A DNA stretch of 61,982 nucleotides from an uncultured Elusimicrobia bacterium (GTDB lineage Bacteria > Elusimicrobiota > Elusimicrobia > Elusimicrobiales > Elusimicrobiaceae). The stretch is from positions 1-61,982 of the forward strand of contig CAMECJ010000009.1 of NCBI GenBank assembly GCA_945913025.1. Direction: 5' to 3'. Positions 17,723 through 35,294 of this stretch are shown one piece after another. The first letter of the stretch is position 1; the number at the start of each line of letters is the position of its first letter. Both the position numbers and the translations under genes were made by a program. The notes under the pieces are model-generated. The model saw only the letters and a list, made by a program, of their open reading frames with translations, was not told the DNA's origin and searched no databases.

Positions 17723-19213
17723 ATGCTTAAAAAAGGAACTTTGTTGTTGGCGGGAGCTTTATTATTGGTGTGCGGCGGCTGGGCTGCCGCGGCCGAGTCC
17801 TCCACGCCGCTGATTGTGGAGGGGAATTTTTCCACGCAAACCAACACGCCTTCCAAAGCGCAGGTGTTTAACCAAAAAGCCCGCGATGCTGAAATCGCTT
17901 CCTTAAACGAAAAACTTAAACTTCGCCGGAATGAAGAAGTGATTAAGCGGATTGAACAGCTTATCTCGCATAATTTTTTGGATAATCGTTTTTATCTTAC
18001 CTTAGCTCTTGCTTACGAGGGACTGGGCAAATACGATGATGTTATTTACTACGCTGCTCAGGCGATTGCCGTCGCGCCGCAGGATTCACGTGCGTATATT
18101 TTACGTGCGGGAGCCTATTTAAAACAAGGTCAGTACGAGCGCTGTCAGATGGATTTGGATACTGCGCTTAAATTGAATCCGAAATCCGCTTTGGCGCAAC
18201 AATATCAGGCCGAATTGGATAAGGAGACTTTCGTCGTGCGTACTCCGGAAGCGCCGGTTTCCGCTCCGCAGAAAAAATCATCTCCTACGTGGTTTATTAT
18301 GTATTTTATGGTGGTATTTGCGGCGATTTTGCTGTATGTCTATTGGCGTTACGAGGATGTTTTCCGAAGGCCGAAAAACGCTTTTTCCCGCAGAGAAGTG
18401 GAAGTAAAAGAACAGTACGATTTTATCCGCCAAATCGGCGAAGGCGGTATGGGCAAAGTGTATGAGGCGTATGACAAAGTGCTTAAGCGCAAAGCCGCTA
18501 TCAAGCGCGTACGGCCGGAACTGGTGCGCAGTGCATACGTGCGCGAACAGTTTTTGTCGGAAGCACGTATGGTGGCGCTTTTACGGCACCCGTGTATTGT
18601 GGAAATTTACACGGTTATTGAGTCCGAAAGTGCTCTTTATTTGGTGTTTGAATATGTGGACGGACAAACGCTTGAGACCCGTTTAGATATTGACGGACGG
18701 TTGCCGTTCTCCAAAGCCAAACAGATTTTTGAATATGTCTGCCGCGGGCTTCATTATGCCCATTCACAGGATATTATTCACTGTGACTTAAAACCCGGAA
18801 ACATTATGATTTACGGTAATGACCAGGCCAAAGTAATGGATTTCGGCGTGGCGAAAAAATCTGTTGACCACGAAACCGGCGCGCGCACGGTGGCGGGTAC
18901 CCCAGCTTATATGGCCCCCGAACAGCAGAAAGGATTTATGCGTAAGCAGTCGGACGTATACTCACTGGCGCTTTGTTTGTATGAGGCGCTTGTCGGGCAA
19001 GTGCCGTGGACAGTAAAAGGGTTTGATATCGCGAATAAAAAAATTGTTCCCGCGTCCAAATTGGCTCCCCATATTCCGCCGGCCGTGGACGGTTTATTGG
19101 CGGATGCGCTGAAGGAGGATCCGAAAGAGCGTATCCAGTCTATTGACGAATTTTGGAGTCGTTTGGAAGCGATTGATCCGTTGGAAGATGAACTGGAAGA
19201 AACCCATTATTAA
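17723..19213 (+). CDS. Membrane Ser/Thr protein kinase with N-terminal TPR domain
   Basis: 496 residues. A signal sequence (1-25) leads into a region with about three TPR-like repeats (70-175). One membrane helix follows (about 187-211), then a complete Hanks-type kinase (232-490): Gly loop GEGGMG (240-245), AIKR lysine, HCDLKPGN (353-360), DFG (373) and GTPAYMAPEQ. The predicted topology is periplasmic TPR sensor and cytoplasmic kinase, the reverse domain order of PknB, whose kinase is N-terminal. The catalytic loop has Cys where most kinases have Arg (HRD), making it a non-RD kinase. Substrates are unknown. The start is leaderless. Confidence 0.9.
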   Translation: MLKKGTLLLAGALLLVCGGWAAAAESSTPLIVEGNFSTQTNTPSKAQVFNQKARDAEIASLNEKLKLRRNEEVIKRIEQLISHNFLDNRFYLTLALAYEGLGKYDDVIYYAAQAIAVAPQDSRAYILRAGAYLKQGQYERCQMDLDTALKLNPKSALAQQYQAELDKETFVVRTPEAPVSAPQKKSSPTWFIMYFMVVFAAILLYVYWRYEDVFRRPKNAFSRREVEVKEQYDFIRQIGEGGMGKVYEAYDKVLKRKAAIKRVRPELVRSAYVREQFLSEARMVALLRHPCIVEIYTVIESESALYLVFEYVDGQTLETRLDIDGRLPFSKAKQIFEYVCRGLHYAHSQDIIHCDLKPGNIMIYGNDQAKVMDFGVAKKSVDHETGARTVAGTPAYMAPEQQKGFMRKQSDVYSLALCLYEALVGQVPWTVKGFDIANKKIVPASKLAPHIPPAVDGLLADALKEDPKERIQSIDEFWSRLEAIDPLEDELEETHY

Positions 19214-26764: not shown

Positions 26765-27856
26765 TTACAGTTTTAACCATTTAAATTCGAAAAATACGAC
26801 GACGGAAAAAAACAGCACCGGCCCCCAGCCGGCAACAAACGGGTTGACGTAGCCGTTCTCGCCAATAGAAGTAAACATAGAAATCAGTGCCCAAAACGAA
26901 AACGCGATGACGAGCGAAGTGATAATGTTTAAAATTTTGCTTTTCCGACGCGTGCTGATGGCAAACGGCATACCGAGCAGGCAGATAAGCACCGTAACGA
27001 AAGGGGTGGCTAATTTTGCTTGGCGCATCGTTTCTGCGGAGTAGTAGGAAAGCCCCGTTTGTTTGTGAAAGCGGATGCGTTTGGTTAAATCGCGCACACT
27101 CATTAAATCTTCGTCTACGCGGCTGATGGACATTTGGTCGGGGCGGATTGCCACTTGGGCGGGTGCGGCGGTAAACTTTTCTTCAGCGGTATTGGTGGCA
27201 TCAGTAAATGTGCGGCGCAAACCGTCCACAAACAGCCAGCTTTCTGTTTCCTTGTCCCACACCATCTGTTCCGCCACAATCTGTTCGGCTATTTCCCACT
27301 GGCTGTTGTAAGTGTCTACGGAAACTTTATTCATGGCGCCTTGTTTCAAGTCCACCTCTTTGGCAAATAACATCTGGGCGGGAGAAATTTTGATAATTAC
27401 GTCCTGTTCCAAAGATTGGTTATAATTGGGATGTGGTTTTAAACGTGTATAATAAATGTAATCAGCTTTTGCGTTTAAAGGCGGAACAATAAATTCCTGT
27501 ATCAGCAGGGTGACTGCGGCTACCAGTAAAATGCACACAATGATCGGTTTAAATAATTGCCGCGGCGAAAACCCCCCTGCTATGCAGGCTGTCCATTCGC
27601 CGTTAGAAACCATTTCGGAAATGACGGAAATTGCTCCGAGCAGGCAGGCTACGGGCATAATAGTAGTAATCCAGTTGGGAAACGTGGCCGTGGAATAGGC
27701 CAAAATATCCCAGATGGTGGTAACGCCGTTACCCAGATTTTTCATCTTTTCAAATGTATCGCCCAATACTACGAGGGTGGCAAACACCCCTAAGGAGAAG
27801 AAAAACGGTCCCCAGAATTTTTTTGAAATATATTTATAAATCAGGTGTGCGCGCAT
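26765..27856 (-). CDS. lptG: LPS export permease LptG-like
   Basis: 363-residue YjgP/YjgQ-family permease with three N-terminal and three C-terminal membrane helices around a periplasmic beta-jellyroll domain. It is part of the LptB2FG machine that extracts LPS from the inner membrane. The start is ATG 27856, overlapping the stop of the lptF-like gene by one base (TGATG); a longer upstream reading frame lies inside that gene. LptG rather than LptF is assigned only from gene order. Confidence 0.85.
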   Translation of the reverse strand: MRAHLIYKYISKKFWGPFFFSLGVFATLVVLGDTFEKMKNLGNGVTTIWDILAYSTATFPNWITTIMPVACLLGAISVISEMVSNGEWTACIAGGFSPRQLFKPIIVCILLVAAVTLLIQEFIVPPLNAKADYIYYTRLKPHPNYNQSLEQDVIIKISPAQMLFAKEVDLKQGAMNKVSVDTYNSQWEIAEQIVAEQMVWDKETESWLFVDGLRRTFTDATNTAEEKFTAAPAQVAIRPDQMSISRVDEDLMSVRDLTKRIRFHKQTGLSYYSAETMRQAKLATPFVTVLICLLGMPFAISTRRKSKILNIITSLVIAFSFWALISMFTSIGENGYVNPFVAGWGPVLFFSVVVFFEFKWLKL

Positions 27857-28950
27857 CAGATGTTCATCCTTTTTTTCCACAGCCAGTACGCCGCCCCGAT
27901 CCCGACAAAAATCGGCAGCCACGGGCCCGGATAGGCGATCCACGTGTATTTTTTACCTAAAGACAAACCGAGCGTCAGCAGCAGGTAAAAGCTGAAAATA
28001 ATAATCACGCTGAACAACATTCCCCACCCTTTATTGGTGCGTTTGCCCAGCGAAAAACCGATCGGACAACTGACAAATAACAAAATAATGGGAGACAGCG
28101 CCAGTACGTTACGCATACTGATGCCGGTGCGGTATTCGTTGGCGGTTTCCGCGTCCAACGGGTTTTTGCGCAAACGGCGCAGCAGTTTGGTGGTGGTCAT
28201 TTCCCCCATACGCGGTGCGCGCCGGTGGGCGCGGAACAGCGAAATACTCATCGTGTAATCGTCAAAATTGGCTGCTATGATTGTGGAAGGATCCTTTTGG
28301 TCTATGCGCTGCATTTGCCCGTCTTTTAACTGCAGACCGATAGCGGTGTCGCTTAAAATCACTTTGCCGGAGGAGGCGTTTACTTTGGTGCTGAGTGCGC
28401 CTGCGTCATTCTTTTTGATTAAATGGATAAGTTCGGCCGCGTTAGTCAGCGGGTTAAGTTTTTCCAGATACAAGTCCCAGTCTCCCAAGTCGATAAAAGT
28501 TTGCGGTTCCAGCGTTACTTTGGTAATTTTGCTGCGCGCTTCGTCGCGGCGGTTTAAAAATTGTTTGTAACTGCGTGGTGTCAGCCAGTTGGCCATAATG
28601 ATTAAGATTACAGATAAAACGATAGCGCATGCAAGCAGCGGGCGGATAATTTCTTTAAAGGAAAATCCTGCCGCGCGCAAGGCAATCATTTCCCCTTGTT
28701 CGCTCATATTGGTCAGCGTCAGCAAAACGGCGATTTGAAAAGCCATTGGCGCGCTTAAACAGAATACATCCGGTAAAATGTTGAGTAAAGACGATACAAT
28801 CCAGCCCAGCCCCGTGCCGTACGTCATTGCCATATCCAGCACGCGGATGAAATGGTTCATAAAAATGACGAACGTCAAAATACCCACCACTCCCGCGAAG
28901 AAAGTGATTAAGCTTTTGGCAATGTAACGGGTAAATATGCTGATATGCAT
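27856..28950 (-). CDS. lptF: LPS export permease LptF-like
   Basis: 364-residue partner permease of the same family: six membrane helices with a central periplasmic domain, and NMSEQGEMIALRAAGFSFKEI, the conserved cytoplasmic coupling segment between helices. It opens the two-gene operon. TAAAAT (28957-28962) lies exactly six bases before the ATG and there is no Shine-Dalgarno site, so the transcript is probably leaderless. LptB is not in the window. Confidence 0.87.
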   Translation of the reverse strand: MHISIFTRYIAKSLITFFAGVVGILTFVIFMNHFIRVLDMAMTYGTGLGWIVSSLLNILPDVFCLSAPMAFQIAVLLTLTNMSEQGEMIALRAAGFSFKEIIRPLLACAIVLSVILIIMANWLTPRSYKQFLNRRDEARSKITKVTLEPQTFIDLGDWDLYLEKLNPLTNAAELIHLIKKNDAGALSTKVNASSGKVILSDTAIGLQLKDGQMQRIDQKDPSTIIAANFDDYTMSISLFRAHRRAPRMGEMTTTKLLRRLRKNPLDAETANEYRTGISMRNVLALSPIILLFVSCPIGFSLGKRTNKGWGMLFSVIIIFSFYLLLTLGLSLGKKYTWIAYPGPWLPIFVGIGAAYWLWKKRMNI

Positions 28951-28962: not shown

Positions 28963-29193
28963 CAAAATATCGGCTTTTTCGGGGGGAAAACGCGCGCGTA
29001 ACCGTGCCGGCGGCAGAAACGGGCAAAACGGGAGGAGGTGCGGCGGAATTTTTGGTACGGGACATCGTATTTGCCTTTGCGGGAGAGGGCCTCAATGGGT
29101 ACGCGGGCGGTTTGTATAGCGAAAGCGGATTTTACCGATTTTATAGAGGGGGTAAATATTATAAAATGAAACAATGAGGTGTTTTGCGTTGTT

Positions 29194-32100
29194 ATGAGGA
29201 TACTGAGGCTCTCCTTTGCCTTTCTTCTGCTTCTTCAGTTTGTTTTCGCTCCCGCGGCGGGTGCGGAAACGCTGCCGTACAGTTTGGTGGATAAAGAGCA
29301 GTATTCCATTTTTCAGGAAGAACAAGCCGCCAAGCGGGAGGAAGAGTTATCCCTTCAGGACCCTCCGGACGACGCCGATCTCTTGCGCTATTCCGGCGAA
29401 TTTTGGCGTCAGGCCGTTACGGCCGTAGAAGGTGCCTACCGTCTTGATAAAGAGCCGGAACCTATTCCCGATTTAACCCTTTTAAATCCGACGCTTTCCT
29501 TGCCGCTGTACGGTACCAGCATCGCCCTGACGGGTCGTTATGTGCTGGGATTTAAACTTTCCGCCAAAAAATACAAAGAAGATCCCAATAACGATATCGA
29601 GGACCGCAACGAAAGCACGATGGAAATGAACCAAGAAATGCAGCTTAAAATGCAGGGTAAAATTATGGATCGCATTTTCGTGGATATCGATTATGACGAC
29701 CAGCGTGAGGACGAAAAAACCATTTCCGTAGCATACCGCGGGAAAGAGGGGGAATTGGTGCAGCTGGCGGAATTCGGTGATCTGAATCTTTCGCTCCCGC
29801 AGACGGAATTTATCACGTATCAAAAACAGCTGTTCGGCGCCAAAATGCACTTGCAGCACAAAAACGCCAATTTGTATTTAATCGGTTCGCAGACGAAAGG
29901 TTCCAGCAAACAGAAGCAGTTCGTGGGGAGCAGTGTGTCGGAAATTATTTCGCTGGCTGATAAGGATTATATCCGCCGGACGTATTATGATTTAACCTTC
30001 GGCGGAAACATTCATCCGGACGGCCCTTCCGCCTATTCTTTCTGGCGGGATACTGTCGGTAACATATCCCCGGGATCCGAAGAAATTTACTTGGACAGCA
30101 ATACCACCTCGTCCGATTACGTTCCCGTTACCAAAGAAGCCACCGACTACTTGGGTACTGACCGCTACGCCGCCCAATGGCAGCTGCTTACCCGCGGCGT
30201 GGACTATACGGTGGATTATTCGCGCGGCATTATTACGTTTAAGCGTTCTATTTCGGCCGAGAGTGTCATTGCCGTAGACTACCGCAACTCGCGCGGCGAA
30301 TGGCTTAGCGCGGCGGGCGCAACTCCCAATACCATCAAACTGATTAAAACGGAAAACGACAAATCGTGGGGCAGTAATTTGGACGAAAGCGCCAGTAAAC
30401 TGGAAATCAAAACTTTTTATAACATCGGCGCCCAAAAAATCACGCAGGACAACGGCAAAGGAAACTTTATTTTACGCTTGTTGGACGCTAACGGACAAGA
30501 GGTGGGGCAGTCGGCCTCGCCCCGTCAGGTATATCCCAGTACGATAGAGGTGGATTTTAATACGGGTATCTTCGAGCTGCAAAACCGTATGGTGGATGAC
30601 CCTGGACTTTACAACGTAACGCCCGTATCGTCGCGCAACCGCACGTTTCAAATTCAGTACGAGTCTACGGTAAAAACGTATTTTATTGAGTCGGACATCG
30701 TGCTTGAATCCGAAAGCGTCAAGCTAAACGGCCGCCAGCTGGTGCGCAACAACGATTATTACATCGATTATACCTCCGGCTTTATTACGTTCTACAAAGG
30801 CGACGAAATTACCGAAAATTCCGTTATTGATATTACTTATGATACGGTAACGGGTTCCAGTTCCAATAATTCTGTTTTGGGCGGACGCTTGGATTATAAA
30901 TTGTTTGATAAAATCGTAATGGGCGCGACGGTGCTGCAGGAAGGGAGCGACAAACCCTCCTCCGTGCCGCAGGTGGGTGCGTATGCCAAAGAATTGCTTG
31001 TCTACGGGGCGGACGTAAACGGGAAAGACATTAAACTGGCCGAGCCGGTTTCCGTGGATTTCAGCGCAGAGGTGGCCAAGAGCAGAAAGAAACAGAACCT
31101 GTTCGGTTACGCGATGATTGACAGTATGAACGAAACGAACGAGCAGGTCTCCGGTTCGCGCATTTTTCGGGACTGGATTATCGCTTCCAACCCGACAATC
31201 CAGGGCGACTCCAACAGCGGCAAACCGTCCTTTTTAAACGCCGTCCGCTGGGATACGCAAGATTTGCCCGCGTTGGAAATCAACCCGCATTCGATTGCTG
31301 ACTACAATGATAAGCAGCAAGTGCTGGTTTTAAATTATGACTTTTCCCAAGGTATCAATTTTGACGGACGCGATGAAGTTTCCATCGTCTATCCGTTAAG
31401 CACGAGCGGTGTAGACTTGTCGGACAAGACATCTTTTGAGCTGACGATGCTCGGCGAAGAAGGCGGTCCGCAGGTAAACTTTACGTTTGGTAACATTTCA
31501 GAGTATTCCGACAGCTCTTTGGGTATGGACACCCAGTGCGGTATGGGCGTGCCGAAAACGGAGGACGTCGCCTGCCGCAACAGCCTAGCGCCGAATGAGG
31601 ATATCGGCTGGCTGTTTACCAATCCGGACGGCACGGAAGAACGGTATAATCCGTTTGTCAACAACGTCTATAATCCCGAATCCCAGCCGAACGGACGTAT
31701 TGATACGCAGGATTTAAACGGCAACGGAAAGTATGACGCGGAGGATATTCCTTTGCAAGGTAATTTTGGTTTTGCGGGTGCGCCTATTGACGGACTGGCC
31801 GGAAACTTGGCGACAAATACCTCTTGGCAGACGTATACGTCGCCGCTGTTAATTACTTCTGCGGAAAAAAGCCAGTGGACGGCGGTGCGCCACCTGCGTA
31901 TTACGCTGAAAAAAGGCCAAAAAATGAAAGGGCAGATTAAAATCGCCAACGTGTCTCTGTCCGGTACCGCGTGGAACGTAAAAGACGGCACGGACCCCGA
32001 CCAGTTTGCCGTATCCGGTATCAATAACGTGGATAATTCCAATTACGAACCGATTTTCGCTGACCGCGTTGGCGACGGTTTGCGCGTATTTAATTATCTG

Positions 32101-34551
32101 TACGGTTCTGTGAATAATTTCAAAAAAGATAACAATTCCGCCAACGCGCTGGATCAGGCGCTAAATTTAAAGTTTGATACCGCTTTGCTGCCTTTCGTGC
32201 CCGATGATACGGATGAAATTCATCCCGCGGGCGAACTGTACGCCAACCGGAACTTTAGGAGTATGGATTTTTCGCAGCACCGCGAGCTGCGCTTCCTGTT
32301 GCATAGTACGTCGGCCAATGCGGGAACGGAGTTCTTTTTAAAAGTAGGTACGGAAACGAATTTTGACAAAGTCATCGTTCCGGCGGATTTCGACGGTTGG
32401 CGGCTGATTTCGCTGCGGATGGCGGATTCGGACGGAGACGGTATTACCGATACGCTTGAGAACGTGTCCGACCCGTCGTACAATGTGCGCGTTGCCCGTC
32501 ACCGCTCGACGGGGGGGCTGCTCAATTTTCGTGAAATCAGCTTAATTTTGTCCGGCGTGCAAAAAAAAGAAGGCACCGTCGGCAGCCAAGGCGAGGTGTG
32601 GCTAAATGTTATTCACTTGGCCGAAGCCATTACGCTGGAGGGCGAAGCGTACAAAGGCGACGTGGTGGTAAAGTGGGACGGTTGGGGCAGCGCGGGAGCC
32701 AAATACAAATATCAGGACAGCAATTTTGAAACCCCGCTCAGCGTCGCCAAAAACCAAGAGGTGACGGAAGAAGAATACTTTTTGAAAGTGGATAAAATCA
32801 AAGAGTTCCCGATGCAGGCCAATTTAACCCGCAGTACGGTGGTGACGCCGCTGATTACGGACAGTTCGGATTACAACACCGTCAGCCTGCTTGATAAAGG
32901 CAAGGTGGAACGCCAAACCGCCGTCGTGCGCGGGGACTTTATTAAAGCAAATATGCCCAGAGTCGGGCTGGAATATACGCTTGATCAAGTGGACTATGGC
33001 GCGATGAAACGCAAAGATGACGCCCGCACCTATGGCGCGACGCTGACGCACTCCGCAGGCTCGTTTAAAAACATTTCTGCGGGATACTATATTACCGATT
33101 CTTCCGTAGATTACGACCGCGAACGCCACTTGGAATCCGAAAACTACTACAACACCGATGAAAACACGCAAAAAATGAATGTAAAGGTAACGTACCAGCC
33201 CAACAACCGTTTCAGTTTTACCCCCAGTTACAGCTTGAGCAAAAGCAAAGAAGACCGCATGAAGTATGAAACAGACGCGGTCACTTCATCACGTTATCCC
33301 AAAGCCATGACCCAGAATACCGGTTTTAACAGTACGTGGAAAATAAATAAATGGCTGGCTCCGTCGGTCAGTTACAACATCAGCACGGTGGAAAACAATA
33401 ACCTTACCGCCAAAACGATTACATCTTCCGGCGCGCGCGTGAATGTGGGAGTGGGCGACGTAAAAACCGTCAACCGCAATGCCGATGGCGGCGTAACGCT
33501 GGCGCTCAACGGAAACGAACTGCTTCCCAAAAGCAAACTGTTTAATACATTTGTCATTTCGTCCAGTTACCGCATTCAGGATGCGGACTCTTGGGCGGAT
33601 GTGGACAGCGGATTTGATTCGCGCAAAGAACTATGGGTCCGCCGCTCGTTTAAGGACGTGGGTCAGTACGGTTACCGTAAAAGTATGACCCTGCGCGACA
33701 CATTTACTTCTACCCAGCGTTGGAATCCGCTTTCCAAGTACGAATTAAACGGCGCATCGGCTCCGCTGAAAACCATTTCCCTCATCAACAACTTTACCAA
33801 AACTTTTCAAACCAACGAACAAACGGGTACGGCATACGATTCCACCAGTCTTACGCTTCCGGATTTGACGTTTTCCATTTCAGATTTGGAAAAATTCTTT
33901 TATGGCGGGCGCTGGCTGAGTTCGTCCAATTTAAAATTGCGTTACGGCAAGTCGGAGCAGATTAACGAGGGGTCTGACGAGCAATACTCCACCCAGTACG
34001 GCGGGGACTTGCGCTTTATGCTGTTTAATTATTTTGATACGGTGCTGAATTACACGCGCAAAAATTCCGACAAAACCGATATCCGTATGAACGCCAGTTT
34101 GGAAAGAGTACGCGAGGAAAATTTATCCGCACAGACTTCTTTTTACGTCGGCTCTATGCGCGTGACGCCCAAAATTACGCATAATTCGTACGACCGCTGG
34201 CTGGTAAGCGGCAAACTCAGCGAAAGTTCTACCGAAACCGTGCCGAGTGTAAACTTGCGCTGGGACTTTAATCTGCCCCACGGCATTAAACTGCCGTTTA
34301 TCAACAAAATGTACAACGCGTCCAACCGTGTGATTTGGAATACCAACTTCAGCTATACGGACAAACGCTCCCCCGTGGAAGTGAAAGAAAACTATAGAAT
34401 GTACGATTTGAGTTCCTCGCTTGATTACGAATTTTCCCAAAACCTGCGTTTTACGGTGTCGGGCGGGCTGACTATTTTGGATCACGCTTACGTCGCCACG
34501 GAAGATTATACCGCCTATAACGTGGCGGCTAATATTACTGTCCAATTTTAG
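29194..34551 (+). CDS. Giant outer-membrane protein, SprA-like (type IX secretion translocon family)
   Basis: About 1,785 residues. ATG 29194 begins a clean signal peptide (MRILRLSFAFLLLLQF...AGA); GTG 29179 would add five residues. After the signal, the region near residues 140-240 (counting from GTG) resembles the N-terminal block of SprA: a LKMQGKIMDRIFVDIDYD core, then GDLNLSLPQTEFITYQKQLFG and QTKGSSKQK. Two copies of the SprA-type repeat follow: RGVDYTVDYSRGIITF (about 339) and NNDYYIDYTSGFITFY (about 523). The second half is long amphipathic strands ending ITVQF, a C-terminal Phe as in BAM-inserted barrels. SprA forms the T9SS outer-membrane channel in Bacteroidota. Orthology is inferred from motif pattern only. 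comF follows eight bases later. Confidence 0.75.
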   Translation: MRILRLSFAFLLLLQFVFAPAAGAETLPYSLVDKEQYSIFQEEQAAKREEELSLQDPPDDADLLRYSGEFWRQAVTAVEGAYRLDKEPEPIPDLTLLNPTLSLPLYGTSIALTGRYVLGFKLSAKKYKEDPNNDIEDRNESTMEMNQEMQLKMQGKIMDRIFVDIDYDDQREDEKTISVAYRGKEGELVQLAEFGDLNLSLPQTEFITYQKQLFGAKMHLQHKNANLYLIGSQTKGSSKQKQFVGSSVSEIISLADKDYIRRTYYDLTFGGNIHPDGPSAYSFWRDTVGNISPGSEEIYLDSNTTSSDYVPVTKEATDYLGTDRYAAQWQLLTRGVDYTVDYSRGIITFKRSISAESVIAVDYRNSRGEWLSAAGATPNTIKLIKTENDKSWGSNLDESASKLEIKTFYNIGAQKITQDNGKGNFILRLLDANGQEVGQSASPRQVYPSTIEVDFNTGIFELQNRMVDDPGLYNVTPVSSRNRTFQIQYESTVKTYFIESDIVLESESVKLNGRQLVRNNDYYIDYTSGFITFYKGDEITENSVIDITYDTVTGSSSNNSVLGGRLDYKLFDKIVMGATVLQEGSDKPSSVPQVGAYAKELLVYGADVNGKDIKLAEPVSVDFSAEVAKSRKKQNLFGYAMIDSMNETNEQVSGSRIFRDWIIASNPTIQGDSNSGKPSFLNAVRWDTQDLPALEINPHSIADYNDKQQVLVLNYDFSQGINFDGRDEVSIVYPLSTSGVDLSDKTSFELTMLGEEGGPQVNFTFGNISEYSDSSLGMDTQCGMGVPKTEDVACRNSLAPNEDIGWLFTNPDGTEERYNPFVNNVYNPESQPNGRIDTQDLNGNGKYDAEDIPLQGNFGFAGAPIDGLAGNLATNTSWQTYTSPLLITSAEKSQWTAVRHLRITLKKGQKMKGQIKIANVSLSGTAWNVKDGTDPDQFAVSGINNVDNSNYEPIFADRVGDGLRVFNYLYGSVNNFKKDNNSANALDQALNLKFDTALLPFVPDDTDEIHPAGELYANRNFRSMDFSQHRELRFLLHSTSANAGTEFFLKVGTETNFDKVIVPADFDGWRLISLRMADSDGDGITDTLENVSDPSYNVRVARHRSTGGLLNFREISLILSGVQKKEGTVGSQGEVWLNVIHLAEAITLEGEAYKGDVVVKWDGWGSAGAKYKYQDSNFETPLSVAKNQEVTEEEYFLKVDKIKEFPMQANLTRSTVVTPLITDSSDYNTVSLLDKGKVERQTAVVRGDFIKANMPRVGLEYTLDQVDYGAMKRKDDARTYGATLTHSAGSFKNISAGYYITDSSVDYDRERHLESENYYNTDENTQKMNVKVTYQPNNRFSFTPSYSLSKSKEDRMKYETDAVTSSRYPKAMTQNTGFNSTWKINKWLAPSVSYNISTVENNNLTAKTITSSGARVNVGVGDVKTVNRNADGGVTLALNGNELLPKSKLFNTFVISSSYRIQDADSWADVDSGFDSRKELWVRRSFKDVGQYGYRKSMTLRDTFTSTQRWNPLSKYELNGASAPLKTISLINNFTKTFQTNEQTGTAYDSTSLTLPDLTFSISDLEKFFYGGRWLSSSNLKLRYGKSEQINEGSDEQYSTQYGGDLRFMLFNYFDTVLNYTRKNSDKTDIRMNASLERVREENLSAQTSFYVGSMRVTPKITHNSYDRWLVSGKLSESSTETVPSVNLRWDFNLPHGIKLPFINKMYNASNRVIWNTNFSYTDKRSPVEVKENYRMYDLSSSLDYEFSQNLRFTVSGGLTILDHAYVATEDYTAYNVAANITVQF

Positions 34552-34559
34552 GAGAGCGT

Positions 34560-35294
34560 ATGCGTTTTGCCGCGCTTCATTCTTTGGTCAAACATATTTT
34601 GCATTTTTTATTTCCGCGTACGTGTTTTGCGTGTGGGTGTGATTTGCCGCGGGACGCTTGCGTCTTTTTATGTGATTCGTGCCAAAAAGGGATAAAGCCC
34701 ACGGGTCCGCTTATTTGCCGCCGGTGCGGTGTAACGCTTAAATCCGGCGGGGCGCATTGTTATAACTGCCGCGGCGGCAAAGCCAAAACGTACAAATGTT
34801 CCGTTATCCGTTCGTCTTTTGCGTTTAACGCTTCTTCCCGCGGGTTGGTGCACGCACTTAAATACGGAGGGGCCGATTATTTGGCGCGGGAAATGGGCAA
34901 ACGAATGGCCGTAAATTTTTGCAAGTATCCGGAATTGGCTGCTGCCGAAATAGTAATGCCCGTGCCGCTGTTCTCTTCCCGCCTCCGCCAACGCGGATAT
35001 AACCAAAGCGCGCTTTTGGCGCGCGCCTTTGCTAAAGAGACGGGCCTTTGCGTTGATGAAACATCTCTTGTTCGCACGCGTAATACGCGCAGCCAAACCA
35101 AGCTGGGCCGGAAAGACAGACTGGAAAATATGACGGGCGCATTTTTGTGCCGTAAACCAAAGGACGTTAAAGGCAAGGTAATTTTACTGGTCGATGATGT
35201 GGCTACTACGGGGGCTACGCTGGAAGGCTGCGCCGCCGCGCTGAAAGCGGCGGGAGCCAAAAAAGTGTTTGCTTATACGTTTGCGCGGGAATAA
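34560..35294 (+). CDS. comF: ComF-family phosphoribosyltransferase-like protein
   Basis: 244 residues. Zinc-finger-like cysteine pairs lie at the N-terminus (CFACGC, CDSCQ, CRRCG, CYNC), then a PRTase fold with the PRPP loop LLVDDVATTGATL near the end. ComF relatives help take up single-stranded DNA or act in DNA repair. ATG 34560 follows GGAGAG eight bases after the SprA-like gene, so the two are likely co-transcribed although their functions are not obviously linked. Confidence 0.92.
   Translation: MRFAALHSLVKHILHFLFPRTCFACGCDLPRDACVFLCDSCQKGIKPTGPLICRRCGVTLKSGGAHCYNCRGGKAKTYKCSVIRSSFAFNASSRGLVHALKYGGADYLAREMGKRMAVNFCKYPELAAAEIVMPVPLFSSRLRQRGYNQSALLARAFAKETGLCVDETSLVRTRNTRSQTKLGRKDRLENMTGAFLCRKPKDVKGKVILLVDDVATTGATLEGCAAALKAAGAKKVFAYTFARE

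What the first reader, a model, noticed from the sequence alone, without database searches (positions are those of the whole stretch)
29194..34551. SprA-like giant outer-membrane protein in a probable non-Bacteroidota genome
The protein has a signal peptide, the SprA-like N-terminal block, two 'DYxVDYxxGxI' repeats and a long beta-strand half ending in a C-terminal Phe. SprA is the outer-membrane channel of the type IX secretion system, described in Bacteroidota and related FCB phyla. If this genome belongs to Elusimicrobiota, it would be evidence for a T9SS-like system, or a repurposed SprA, outside that group. At about 1,785 residues it is shorter than the 2,300-plus residue SprA of Flavobacterium.
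Basis: partly seen in the sequence, partly recalled or inferred. Interest (0 to 1): 0.75.

Follow-up and report, generated by a model that had tools for sequence, protein, structure and literature searches.

The report
Type IX-like secretion core in Elusimicrobiota
Bacteria of the phylum Elusimicrobiota carry a giant outer-membrane channel related to SprA of the Bacteroidota type IX secretion system, together with its carrier proteins and tagged cargo but without the recognised motor and sortase, so this export route seems wider and more varied than thought.

Summary
The ORF is real: 29194-34551 (+), 1,785 aa. It is a distant SprA homologue. It matches TIGR04189 at E=6.7e-30 (103 bits, below the 200-bit equivalog cut-off). 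A phylum profile finds only SprA in the PDB (E=1.4e-32, three collinear stretches). Two AlphaFold fragments covering residues 31-1790 find SprA first in Foldseek (1.6e-47 and 1.5e-19). The genome is Elusimicrobiota. The gene is present in 129 of 150 genomes sampled across the phylum, and 18 of the 20 loci examined keep the order lptG-lptF / sprA(-comF). Partners exist. PorV-family proteins are near universal, often with many paralogues. Many proteins end in type A-like sorting domains (Lys at -6 in 35/39). In 18 of 38 cases the cargo gene is directly followed by a porV gene. The window's own genome keeps one such pair. GldM, GldN and the PorU catalytic domain were not detected. In several deep lineages an M6 metalloprotease with HExxH and its own sorting domain lies beside sprA. 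Best reading: a T9SS-like translocon that hands cargo to dedicated PorV carriers, with an unknown motor and sortase. Held papers describe T9SS only in Bacteroidota/FCB phyla. Barrel closure, secretion and energisation are inferred, not shown.

The parts
29194..34551 (+). SprA-like giant outer-membrane protein, 1,785 aa (ORF opens at GTG 29179; ATG 29194 is the likely start)
   Evidence: TIGR04189 E=6.7e-30; phylum profile hits only SprA in PDB, E=1.4e-32; Foldseek SprA 1.6e-47 and 1.5e-19
29521..29988 (+). SprA N-terminal block (residues 115-270), first barrel strands
   Evidence: TIGR04189 positions 99-254; aligns to SprA 150-286
30190..30246 (+). first DYxVDYxxGxI repeat (approximate extent)
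   Evidence: sequence; invariant D/Y columns 342, 343, 346
30694..31215 (+). central SprA block with the second DYxIDYxxGFI repeat
   Evidence: TIGR04189 positions 603-795, E=1.2e-13; part aligns to SprA 698-779
31786..32586 (+). insert region aligned to SprA 1158-1570, with conserved Asp/Asn-rich segments just upstream
   Evidence: best stretch of the profile match to 6h3i; consensus
32587..34551 (+). C-terminal beta-barrel half: 28 predicted strands of 9 or more residues, ending in Phe
   Evidence: AlphaFold2 pLDDT 84.8; strand tally; Foldseek top four all SprA
27856..28950 (-). lptF/lptG permease, divergent neighbour kept across the phylum
   Evidence: PF03739 E=1.4e-66; divergent pair beside sprA in 18 of 20 lineages
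26765..27943 (-). second lptF/lptG permease of the pair
   Evidence: PF03739 E=5.9e-68
34560..35294 (+). comF-like phosphoribosyltransferase with double zinc ribbon, directly downstream in most lineages
   Evidence: PF00156 and PF18912; synteny

Best explanation
The protein is the outer-membrane translocon of a T9SS-like export route that is core to Elusimicrobiota. Proposed working: (1) cargo with a Sec signal peptide and a C-terminal type A-like sorting domain reaches the periplasm; (2) it enters the large SprA-like barrel; (3) its sorting domain binds a PorV-family barrel docked at the barrel's side opening; (4) the PorV-cargo complex leaves sideways and stays on the surface or is processed. 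Unlike the Bacteroidota rule of one PorV for all type A cargo, many cargoes here have their own PorV gene next door. Shown here: SprA homology by sequence and fold, PorV-family partners, C-terminal CTDs, cargo-porV gene pairs, and joint absence with PorV. Inferred: closed barrel, side opening, PorV docking, transport, and a motor and protease other than GldM/GldN and PorU.
For: SprA homology. Fold. Phylum-wide gene with lptFG/comF synteny. PorV family in 96/100 genomes, 62 over the curated cut-off; own PorV 92.8 bits against a cut-off of 90. CTD (TIGR04183) in 72/100 genomes; domain at the extreme C-terminus in 39/39 sampled proteins and Lys at -6 in 35/39, the near-invariant Lys of type A CTDs (PMC10994853). 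Next gene downstream of the CTD gene is porV in 18/38, against 6/165 control genes. Own genome: a contig opens with a CTD end 84 nt before its porV, and four relatives have an intact 1,400-1,800 aa cargo in that place. Within genus g24 (reduced genomes), PorV is present in 10/10 genomes with SprA and 0/6 without.
Against: The TIGR04189 equivalog cut-off (200 bits) is not reached by any of 150 genomes. GldM and GldN gave only marginal matches (E 0.004-0.009), and NF033707 hits fell only on its C-terminal part, so energy input and processing are unexplained. The whole 1,785-residue protein could not be folded at once, so barrel closure and size are not shown. VIA-align ranks ordinary barrels level with SprA for the C-terminal half. 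FlgD-like Ig domains resemble CTDs, and TIGR04183 matches 3 of 14 control genomes (1 over the cut-off). The window's own cargo gene is broken across contigs.
Confidence: 0.82

Rival explanations
1. A canonical T9SS is present, but GldK-N, SprE and PorU are too diverged for the profiles used. The motor and sortase exist and work as in Bacteroidota.
For: SprA itself stays below its equivalog cut-off in all 150 genomes while clearly homologous, so other parts could be diverged further. A few GldM-like matches at E 0.005-0.009 occur in the window's genus.
Against: GldM: 3 of 100 genomes, all marginal; GldN: 1 of 60, marginal. For PorU, all listed hits lie beyond position 860 of 1095, in the C-terminal part. 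The weak GldM matches cover only 75-80 residues, two with a stop inside the stretch.
Confidence: 0.3
2. The SprA-like barrel has been repurposed, for example for lipopolysaccharide or outer-membrane assembly, because it nearly always sits beside lptF/lptG, and no longer secretes CTD proteins.
For: Divergent lptFG pair in 18 of 20 sprA loci. In the window's genus TIGR04183 finds almost no cargo.
Against: Co-absence with PorV, cargo-porV gene pairs, and in several lineages an M6-CTD gene and/or a PorV-like gene inside the sprA neighbourhood. The window's genus does keep a CTD cargo that TIGR04183 misses. The fold matches SprA, not LptD, in Foldseek.
Confidence: 0.1
3. The match reflects only generic beta-rich sequence (DYxVDYxxGxI motif and barrel strands), not homology to SprA.
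For: A phage tail-tube model and DUF2460 also match the repeat.
Against: Three collinear profile stretches to SprA and no other PDB sequence at E up to 1. The N-terminal fragment gives SprA at 1.6e-47 with the next entry at 4.2e-5.
Confidence: 0.02

Closest known systems
SprA/Sov, T9SS translocon of Flavobacterium johnsoniae and Porphyromonas gingivalis (TIGR04189; PDB 6h3i, 8gl6, 8gl8)
   Same: Collinear N-terminal, central and insert blocks; long C-terminal strand region; fold match in both halves; PorV-family partners
   Different: About 1,785 aa against 2,403 aa (6h3i chain); 103 bits against a cut-off of 200; gene sits by lptFG and comF; GldM/GldN/PorU not detected
Type B cargo with cognate PorP/SprF shuttle genes in F. 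johnsoniae (PMC12618676)
   Same: Shuttle gene commonly directly downstream of the cargo gene
   Different: Here the cargo tail is type A-like and the shuttle belongs to the PorV family, whereas Bacteroidota type A cargo all share one PorV
Orphan TIGR04183 proteins of Poribacteria (PMC3909097)
   Same: CTD-bearing proteins outside Bacteroidota without the recognised Por structural genes
   Different: Elusimicrobiota also carry a SprA-like translocon and PorV family, giving a plausible route
NCBIfam NF052323/NF052325 (T9SS-dependent M6-like inactivated protease; PorV2)
   Same: M6-like protein with a CTD beside a PorV-like protein, near sprA in several deep Elusimicrobiota
   Different: The Elusimicrobiota M6 proteins keep HExxH; scores are far below those equivalog cut-offs

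Membership tests
SprA/Sov equivalog (TIGR04189) | score over the curated cut-off of 200 bits | tested here: not met
   103.1 bits, E=6.7e-30; 0 of 150 genomes over cut-off
SprA superfamily (homology) | collinear profile match to solved SprA and no other family | tested here: met
   6h3i E=1.4e-32, three stretches
SprA superfamily (homology) | SprA fold | tested here: met
   Foldseek top four all SprA for both fragments
SprA superfamily (homology) | single closed 36-strand barrel with side opening | tested here: inconclusive
   28 strands of 9 or more residues in the C-terminal half plus about 11 candidate barrel strands among 15 longer strands of the N-terminal part; the whole chain exceeds the folding limit
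Type IX secretion system | PorV/PorQ-family carrier | tested here: met
   NF033709 in 96/100 genomes; own 92.8 bits over cut-off 90
Type IX secretion system | cargo with C-terminal sorting domain | tested here: met
   TIGR04183 in 72/100 genomes; extreme C-terminus 39/39; own genome CTD end
Type IX secretion system | GldM/PorM periplasmic motor arm | tested here: not met
   3/100 marginal, none over cut-off; divergent form not excluded
Type IX secretion system | GldN/PorN ring protein | tested here: not met
   1/60 marginal; divergent form not excluded
Type IX secretion system | PorU sortase | tested here: not met
   listed matches only in the C-terminal part of NF033707, none over cut-off in 60 genomes
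Type IX secretion system | GldK, GldL, SprE | not tested
Type IX secretion system | secretion depends on SprA | not testable with these tools
   needs a mutant

The most novel reading that the evidence does not exclude
Elusimicrobiota have a T9SS variant without the GldL/M motor and without PorU. Each cargo carries its own PorV-family carrier, the M6 metalloprotease with a CTD beside sprA acts as the processing enzyme, and energy comes from another source or from cargo folding outside the cell.
Probability: 0.4. Interest if true: 0.9.

Novelty: new variant of a known kind. Interest (0 to 1): 0.77.

Why it matters
A 2016 survey found T9SS only in Bacteroidetes (PMC4793230), and a 2024 paper states T9SS genes are absent from phyla outside FCB (PMC11285876). 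A SprA-PorV-CTD core kept across a separate phylum changes the inferred age and spread of this route. It separates the conserved translocon core from the motor and sortase. It offers cargo-carrier gene pairs to test which residues set carrier specificity, and a candidate route for orphan CTD proteins reported in other phyla.

Tried and rejected
Viral contigs hold no relative. A single-sequence phmmer against the PDB gave only chance matches; the profile was needed. One own-genome PorV-family hit (G000:C1) is a FadL-family protein (PF03349 E=4e-67) and was discarded. M6 hits in the window's own family are short, weak matches around the active-site motif, not the sprA-linked protease. VIA-align did not rank SprA above ordinary porins and TonB barrels for the C-terminal half; this is reported as inconclusive, not as support. 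A tree against FCB SprA could not be made, because no FCB sequences were among the loci returned. Held papers with T9SS and Elusimicrobi terms make no such claim in the passages found.

Full report
Observation. The ORF spans 29179-34551 on +; relatives place the start at ATG 29194. The signal-peptide-like N-terminus, N-block, two repeats, strand-rich C-terminal half and terminal Phe are all present.

Identity. NCBIfam gives TIGR04189 (T9SS translocon Sov/SprA) at E=6.7e-30 in three stretches, 103 bits, below the equivalog cut-off of 200. An alignment of 21 homologues drawn across the phylum (27-74% identity to the window protein) used as a profile against all PDB sequences finds only SprA (E=1.4e-32): profile 140-273 to SprA 150-286, 504-585 to 698-779, 806-1156 to 1158-1570. 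Residues 870-1790 fold at mean pLDDT 84.8 and residues 31-1180 at 79.2. Foldseek puts SprA entries in the first four ranks for both: 1.5e-19 with the next family at 5.4e-6, and 1.6e-47 with the next at 4.2e-5. A second look with VIA-align was not discriminating for the C-terminal half. The strand tally gives 28 strands of 9 or more residues in the C-terminal half and 15 of 8 or more residues in the N-terminal part, of which about 11 sit in the two barrel-like runs. This is compatible with a SprA-size barrel, but the chain exceeds the folding limit and closure is not shown.

Organism and distribution. Near relatives are Elusimicrobiota records, mostly rumen and gut Elusimicrobiaceae and groundwater Elusimicrobia, with a few untitled MAGs. 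SprA-like genes occur in 129 of 150 genomes across the phylum and in none of 14 control genomes; the genomes without a match that are listed are all in one family, f10, many of them small genomes of genus g24. In the 20 loci examined the ORF is 1,725-1,942 aa; divergent lptF/lptG adjoin it in 18, and comF follows in most. This points to vertical inheritance within the phylum.

Partners. PorV-family proteins: 96/100 genomes, 62 over the cut-off, often around 20 or more scored matches per genome. Type A-like CTDs: 72/100 genomes. I took the best CTD hit of each of 40 genomes without regard to neighbours. The domain lies at the extreme C-terminus in 39/39 resolved cases, and Lys is at -6 in 35/39, matching the near-invariant Lys of type A CTDs (PMC10994853). 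The next gene downstream is a PorV-family gene in 18/38, plus 3 with PorV directly upstream, against 6/165 control genes. In Bacteroidota all type A CTDs use one PorV, while type B cargo have cognate downstream PorP/SprF shuttles (PMC12618676); here the paired arrangement is used with PorV. In genus g24, PorV (E<=1e-10) is in 10/10 SprA-positive and 0/6 SprA-negative genomes; across 100 genomes it is 91/91 against 2/9. Relatedness of genomes is not corrected for, and draft genomes may miss genes.

The window's own genome. It has one confident PorV (G000:C7:175-1149; 92.8 bits over 90). The contig begins with the reading frame ...VARGVYFGLVDFKAQNGREHCQKVVKVLVP*, a CTD end, 84 nt before porV. 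In G099, G036, G034 and G067 the same place holds a 1,400-1,800 aa protein with FlgD-like repeats and such an end, then porV, then further genes; in the own genome the genes after porV include Tad-pilus genes (tadE, cpaB, tadA). TIGR04183 misses this CTD, which carries an insertion. Two own contigs hold N-terminal parts of similar cargo, so the gene appears broken in the assembly.

Missing parts. GldM: 3/100 genomes, E 0.005-0.009. GldN: 1/60, E 0.004. NF033707 (PorU): listed hits only beyond position 860. GldK, GldL and SprE were not tested. In deep lineages a TIGR03296 M6 metalloprotease with HExxH and a CTD-like end lies next to the sprA-lptFG block, often with a PorV-like gene. It is a candidate processing enzyme by position and domains only. 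It is not detected as such in the window's family.

Mechanism. By analogy with SprA-PorV structures (PMC10994853), cargo enters the barrel from the periplasm, its CTD binds PorV at the side opening, and the PorV-cargo pair leaves sideways; in F. johnsoniae the energy is needed at release. What supplies energy here is unknown.

Literature. T9SS was found only in Bacteroidetes in a 2016 survey (PMC4793230) and is said to be absent outside FCB phyla (PMC11285876). No held paper found reports it in Elusimicrobiota; subscription papers and preprints are not held, so an earlier report cannot be excluded. Poribacteria have orphan TIGR04183 proteins (PMC3909097).

Verdict. A real SprA homologue and a T9SS-like core in a phylum outside FCB; not a canonical T9SS as tested; new variant of a known kind.

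Noticed in passing
G028:C11:39387-39662, G037:C6:90200-90490, G109:C35:268907-269176, G030:C6:189659-189934: CTD-like matches inside open frames of 13,000-17,600 aa: apparently giant proteins in free-living Elusimicrobiota.
   Followed up: no
G000:C25:1-3175 and G000:C11:28080-31554: Two paralogous large cargo-like genes (about 95% DNA identity over 2.3 kb) both run off contig ends; repeats probably broke the assembly.
   Followed up: partly
sprA loci L076-L080, L082, L083: M6 metalloprotease with intact HExxH and a CTD-like end beside lptFG-sprA, often with a PorV-like or PorV gene.
   Followed up: partly
L081:2971-4629, L085:3380-5014: PorV-like gene of about 550 aa next to lptG in lineages where no M6-CTD gene is seen in the locus.
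   Followed up: no
window 17723-19213: Serine/threonine protein kinase domain fused to TPR repeats.
   Followed up: no
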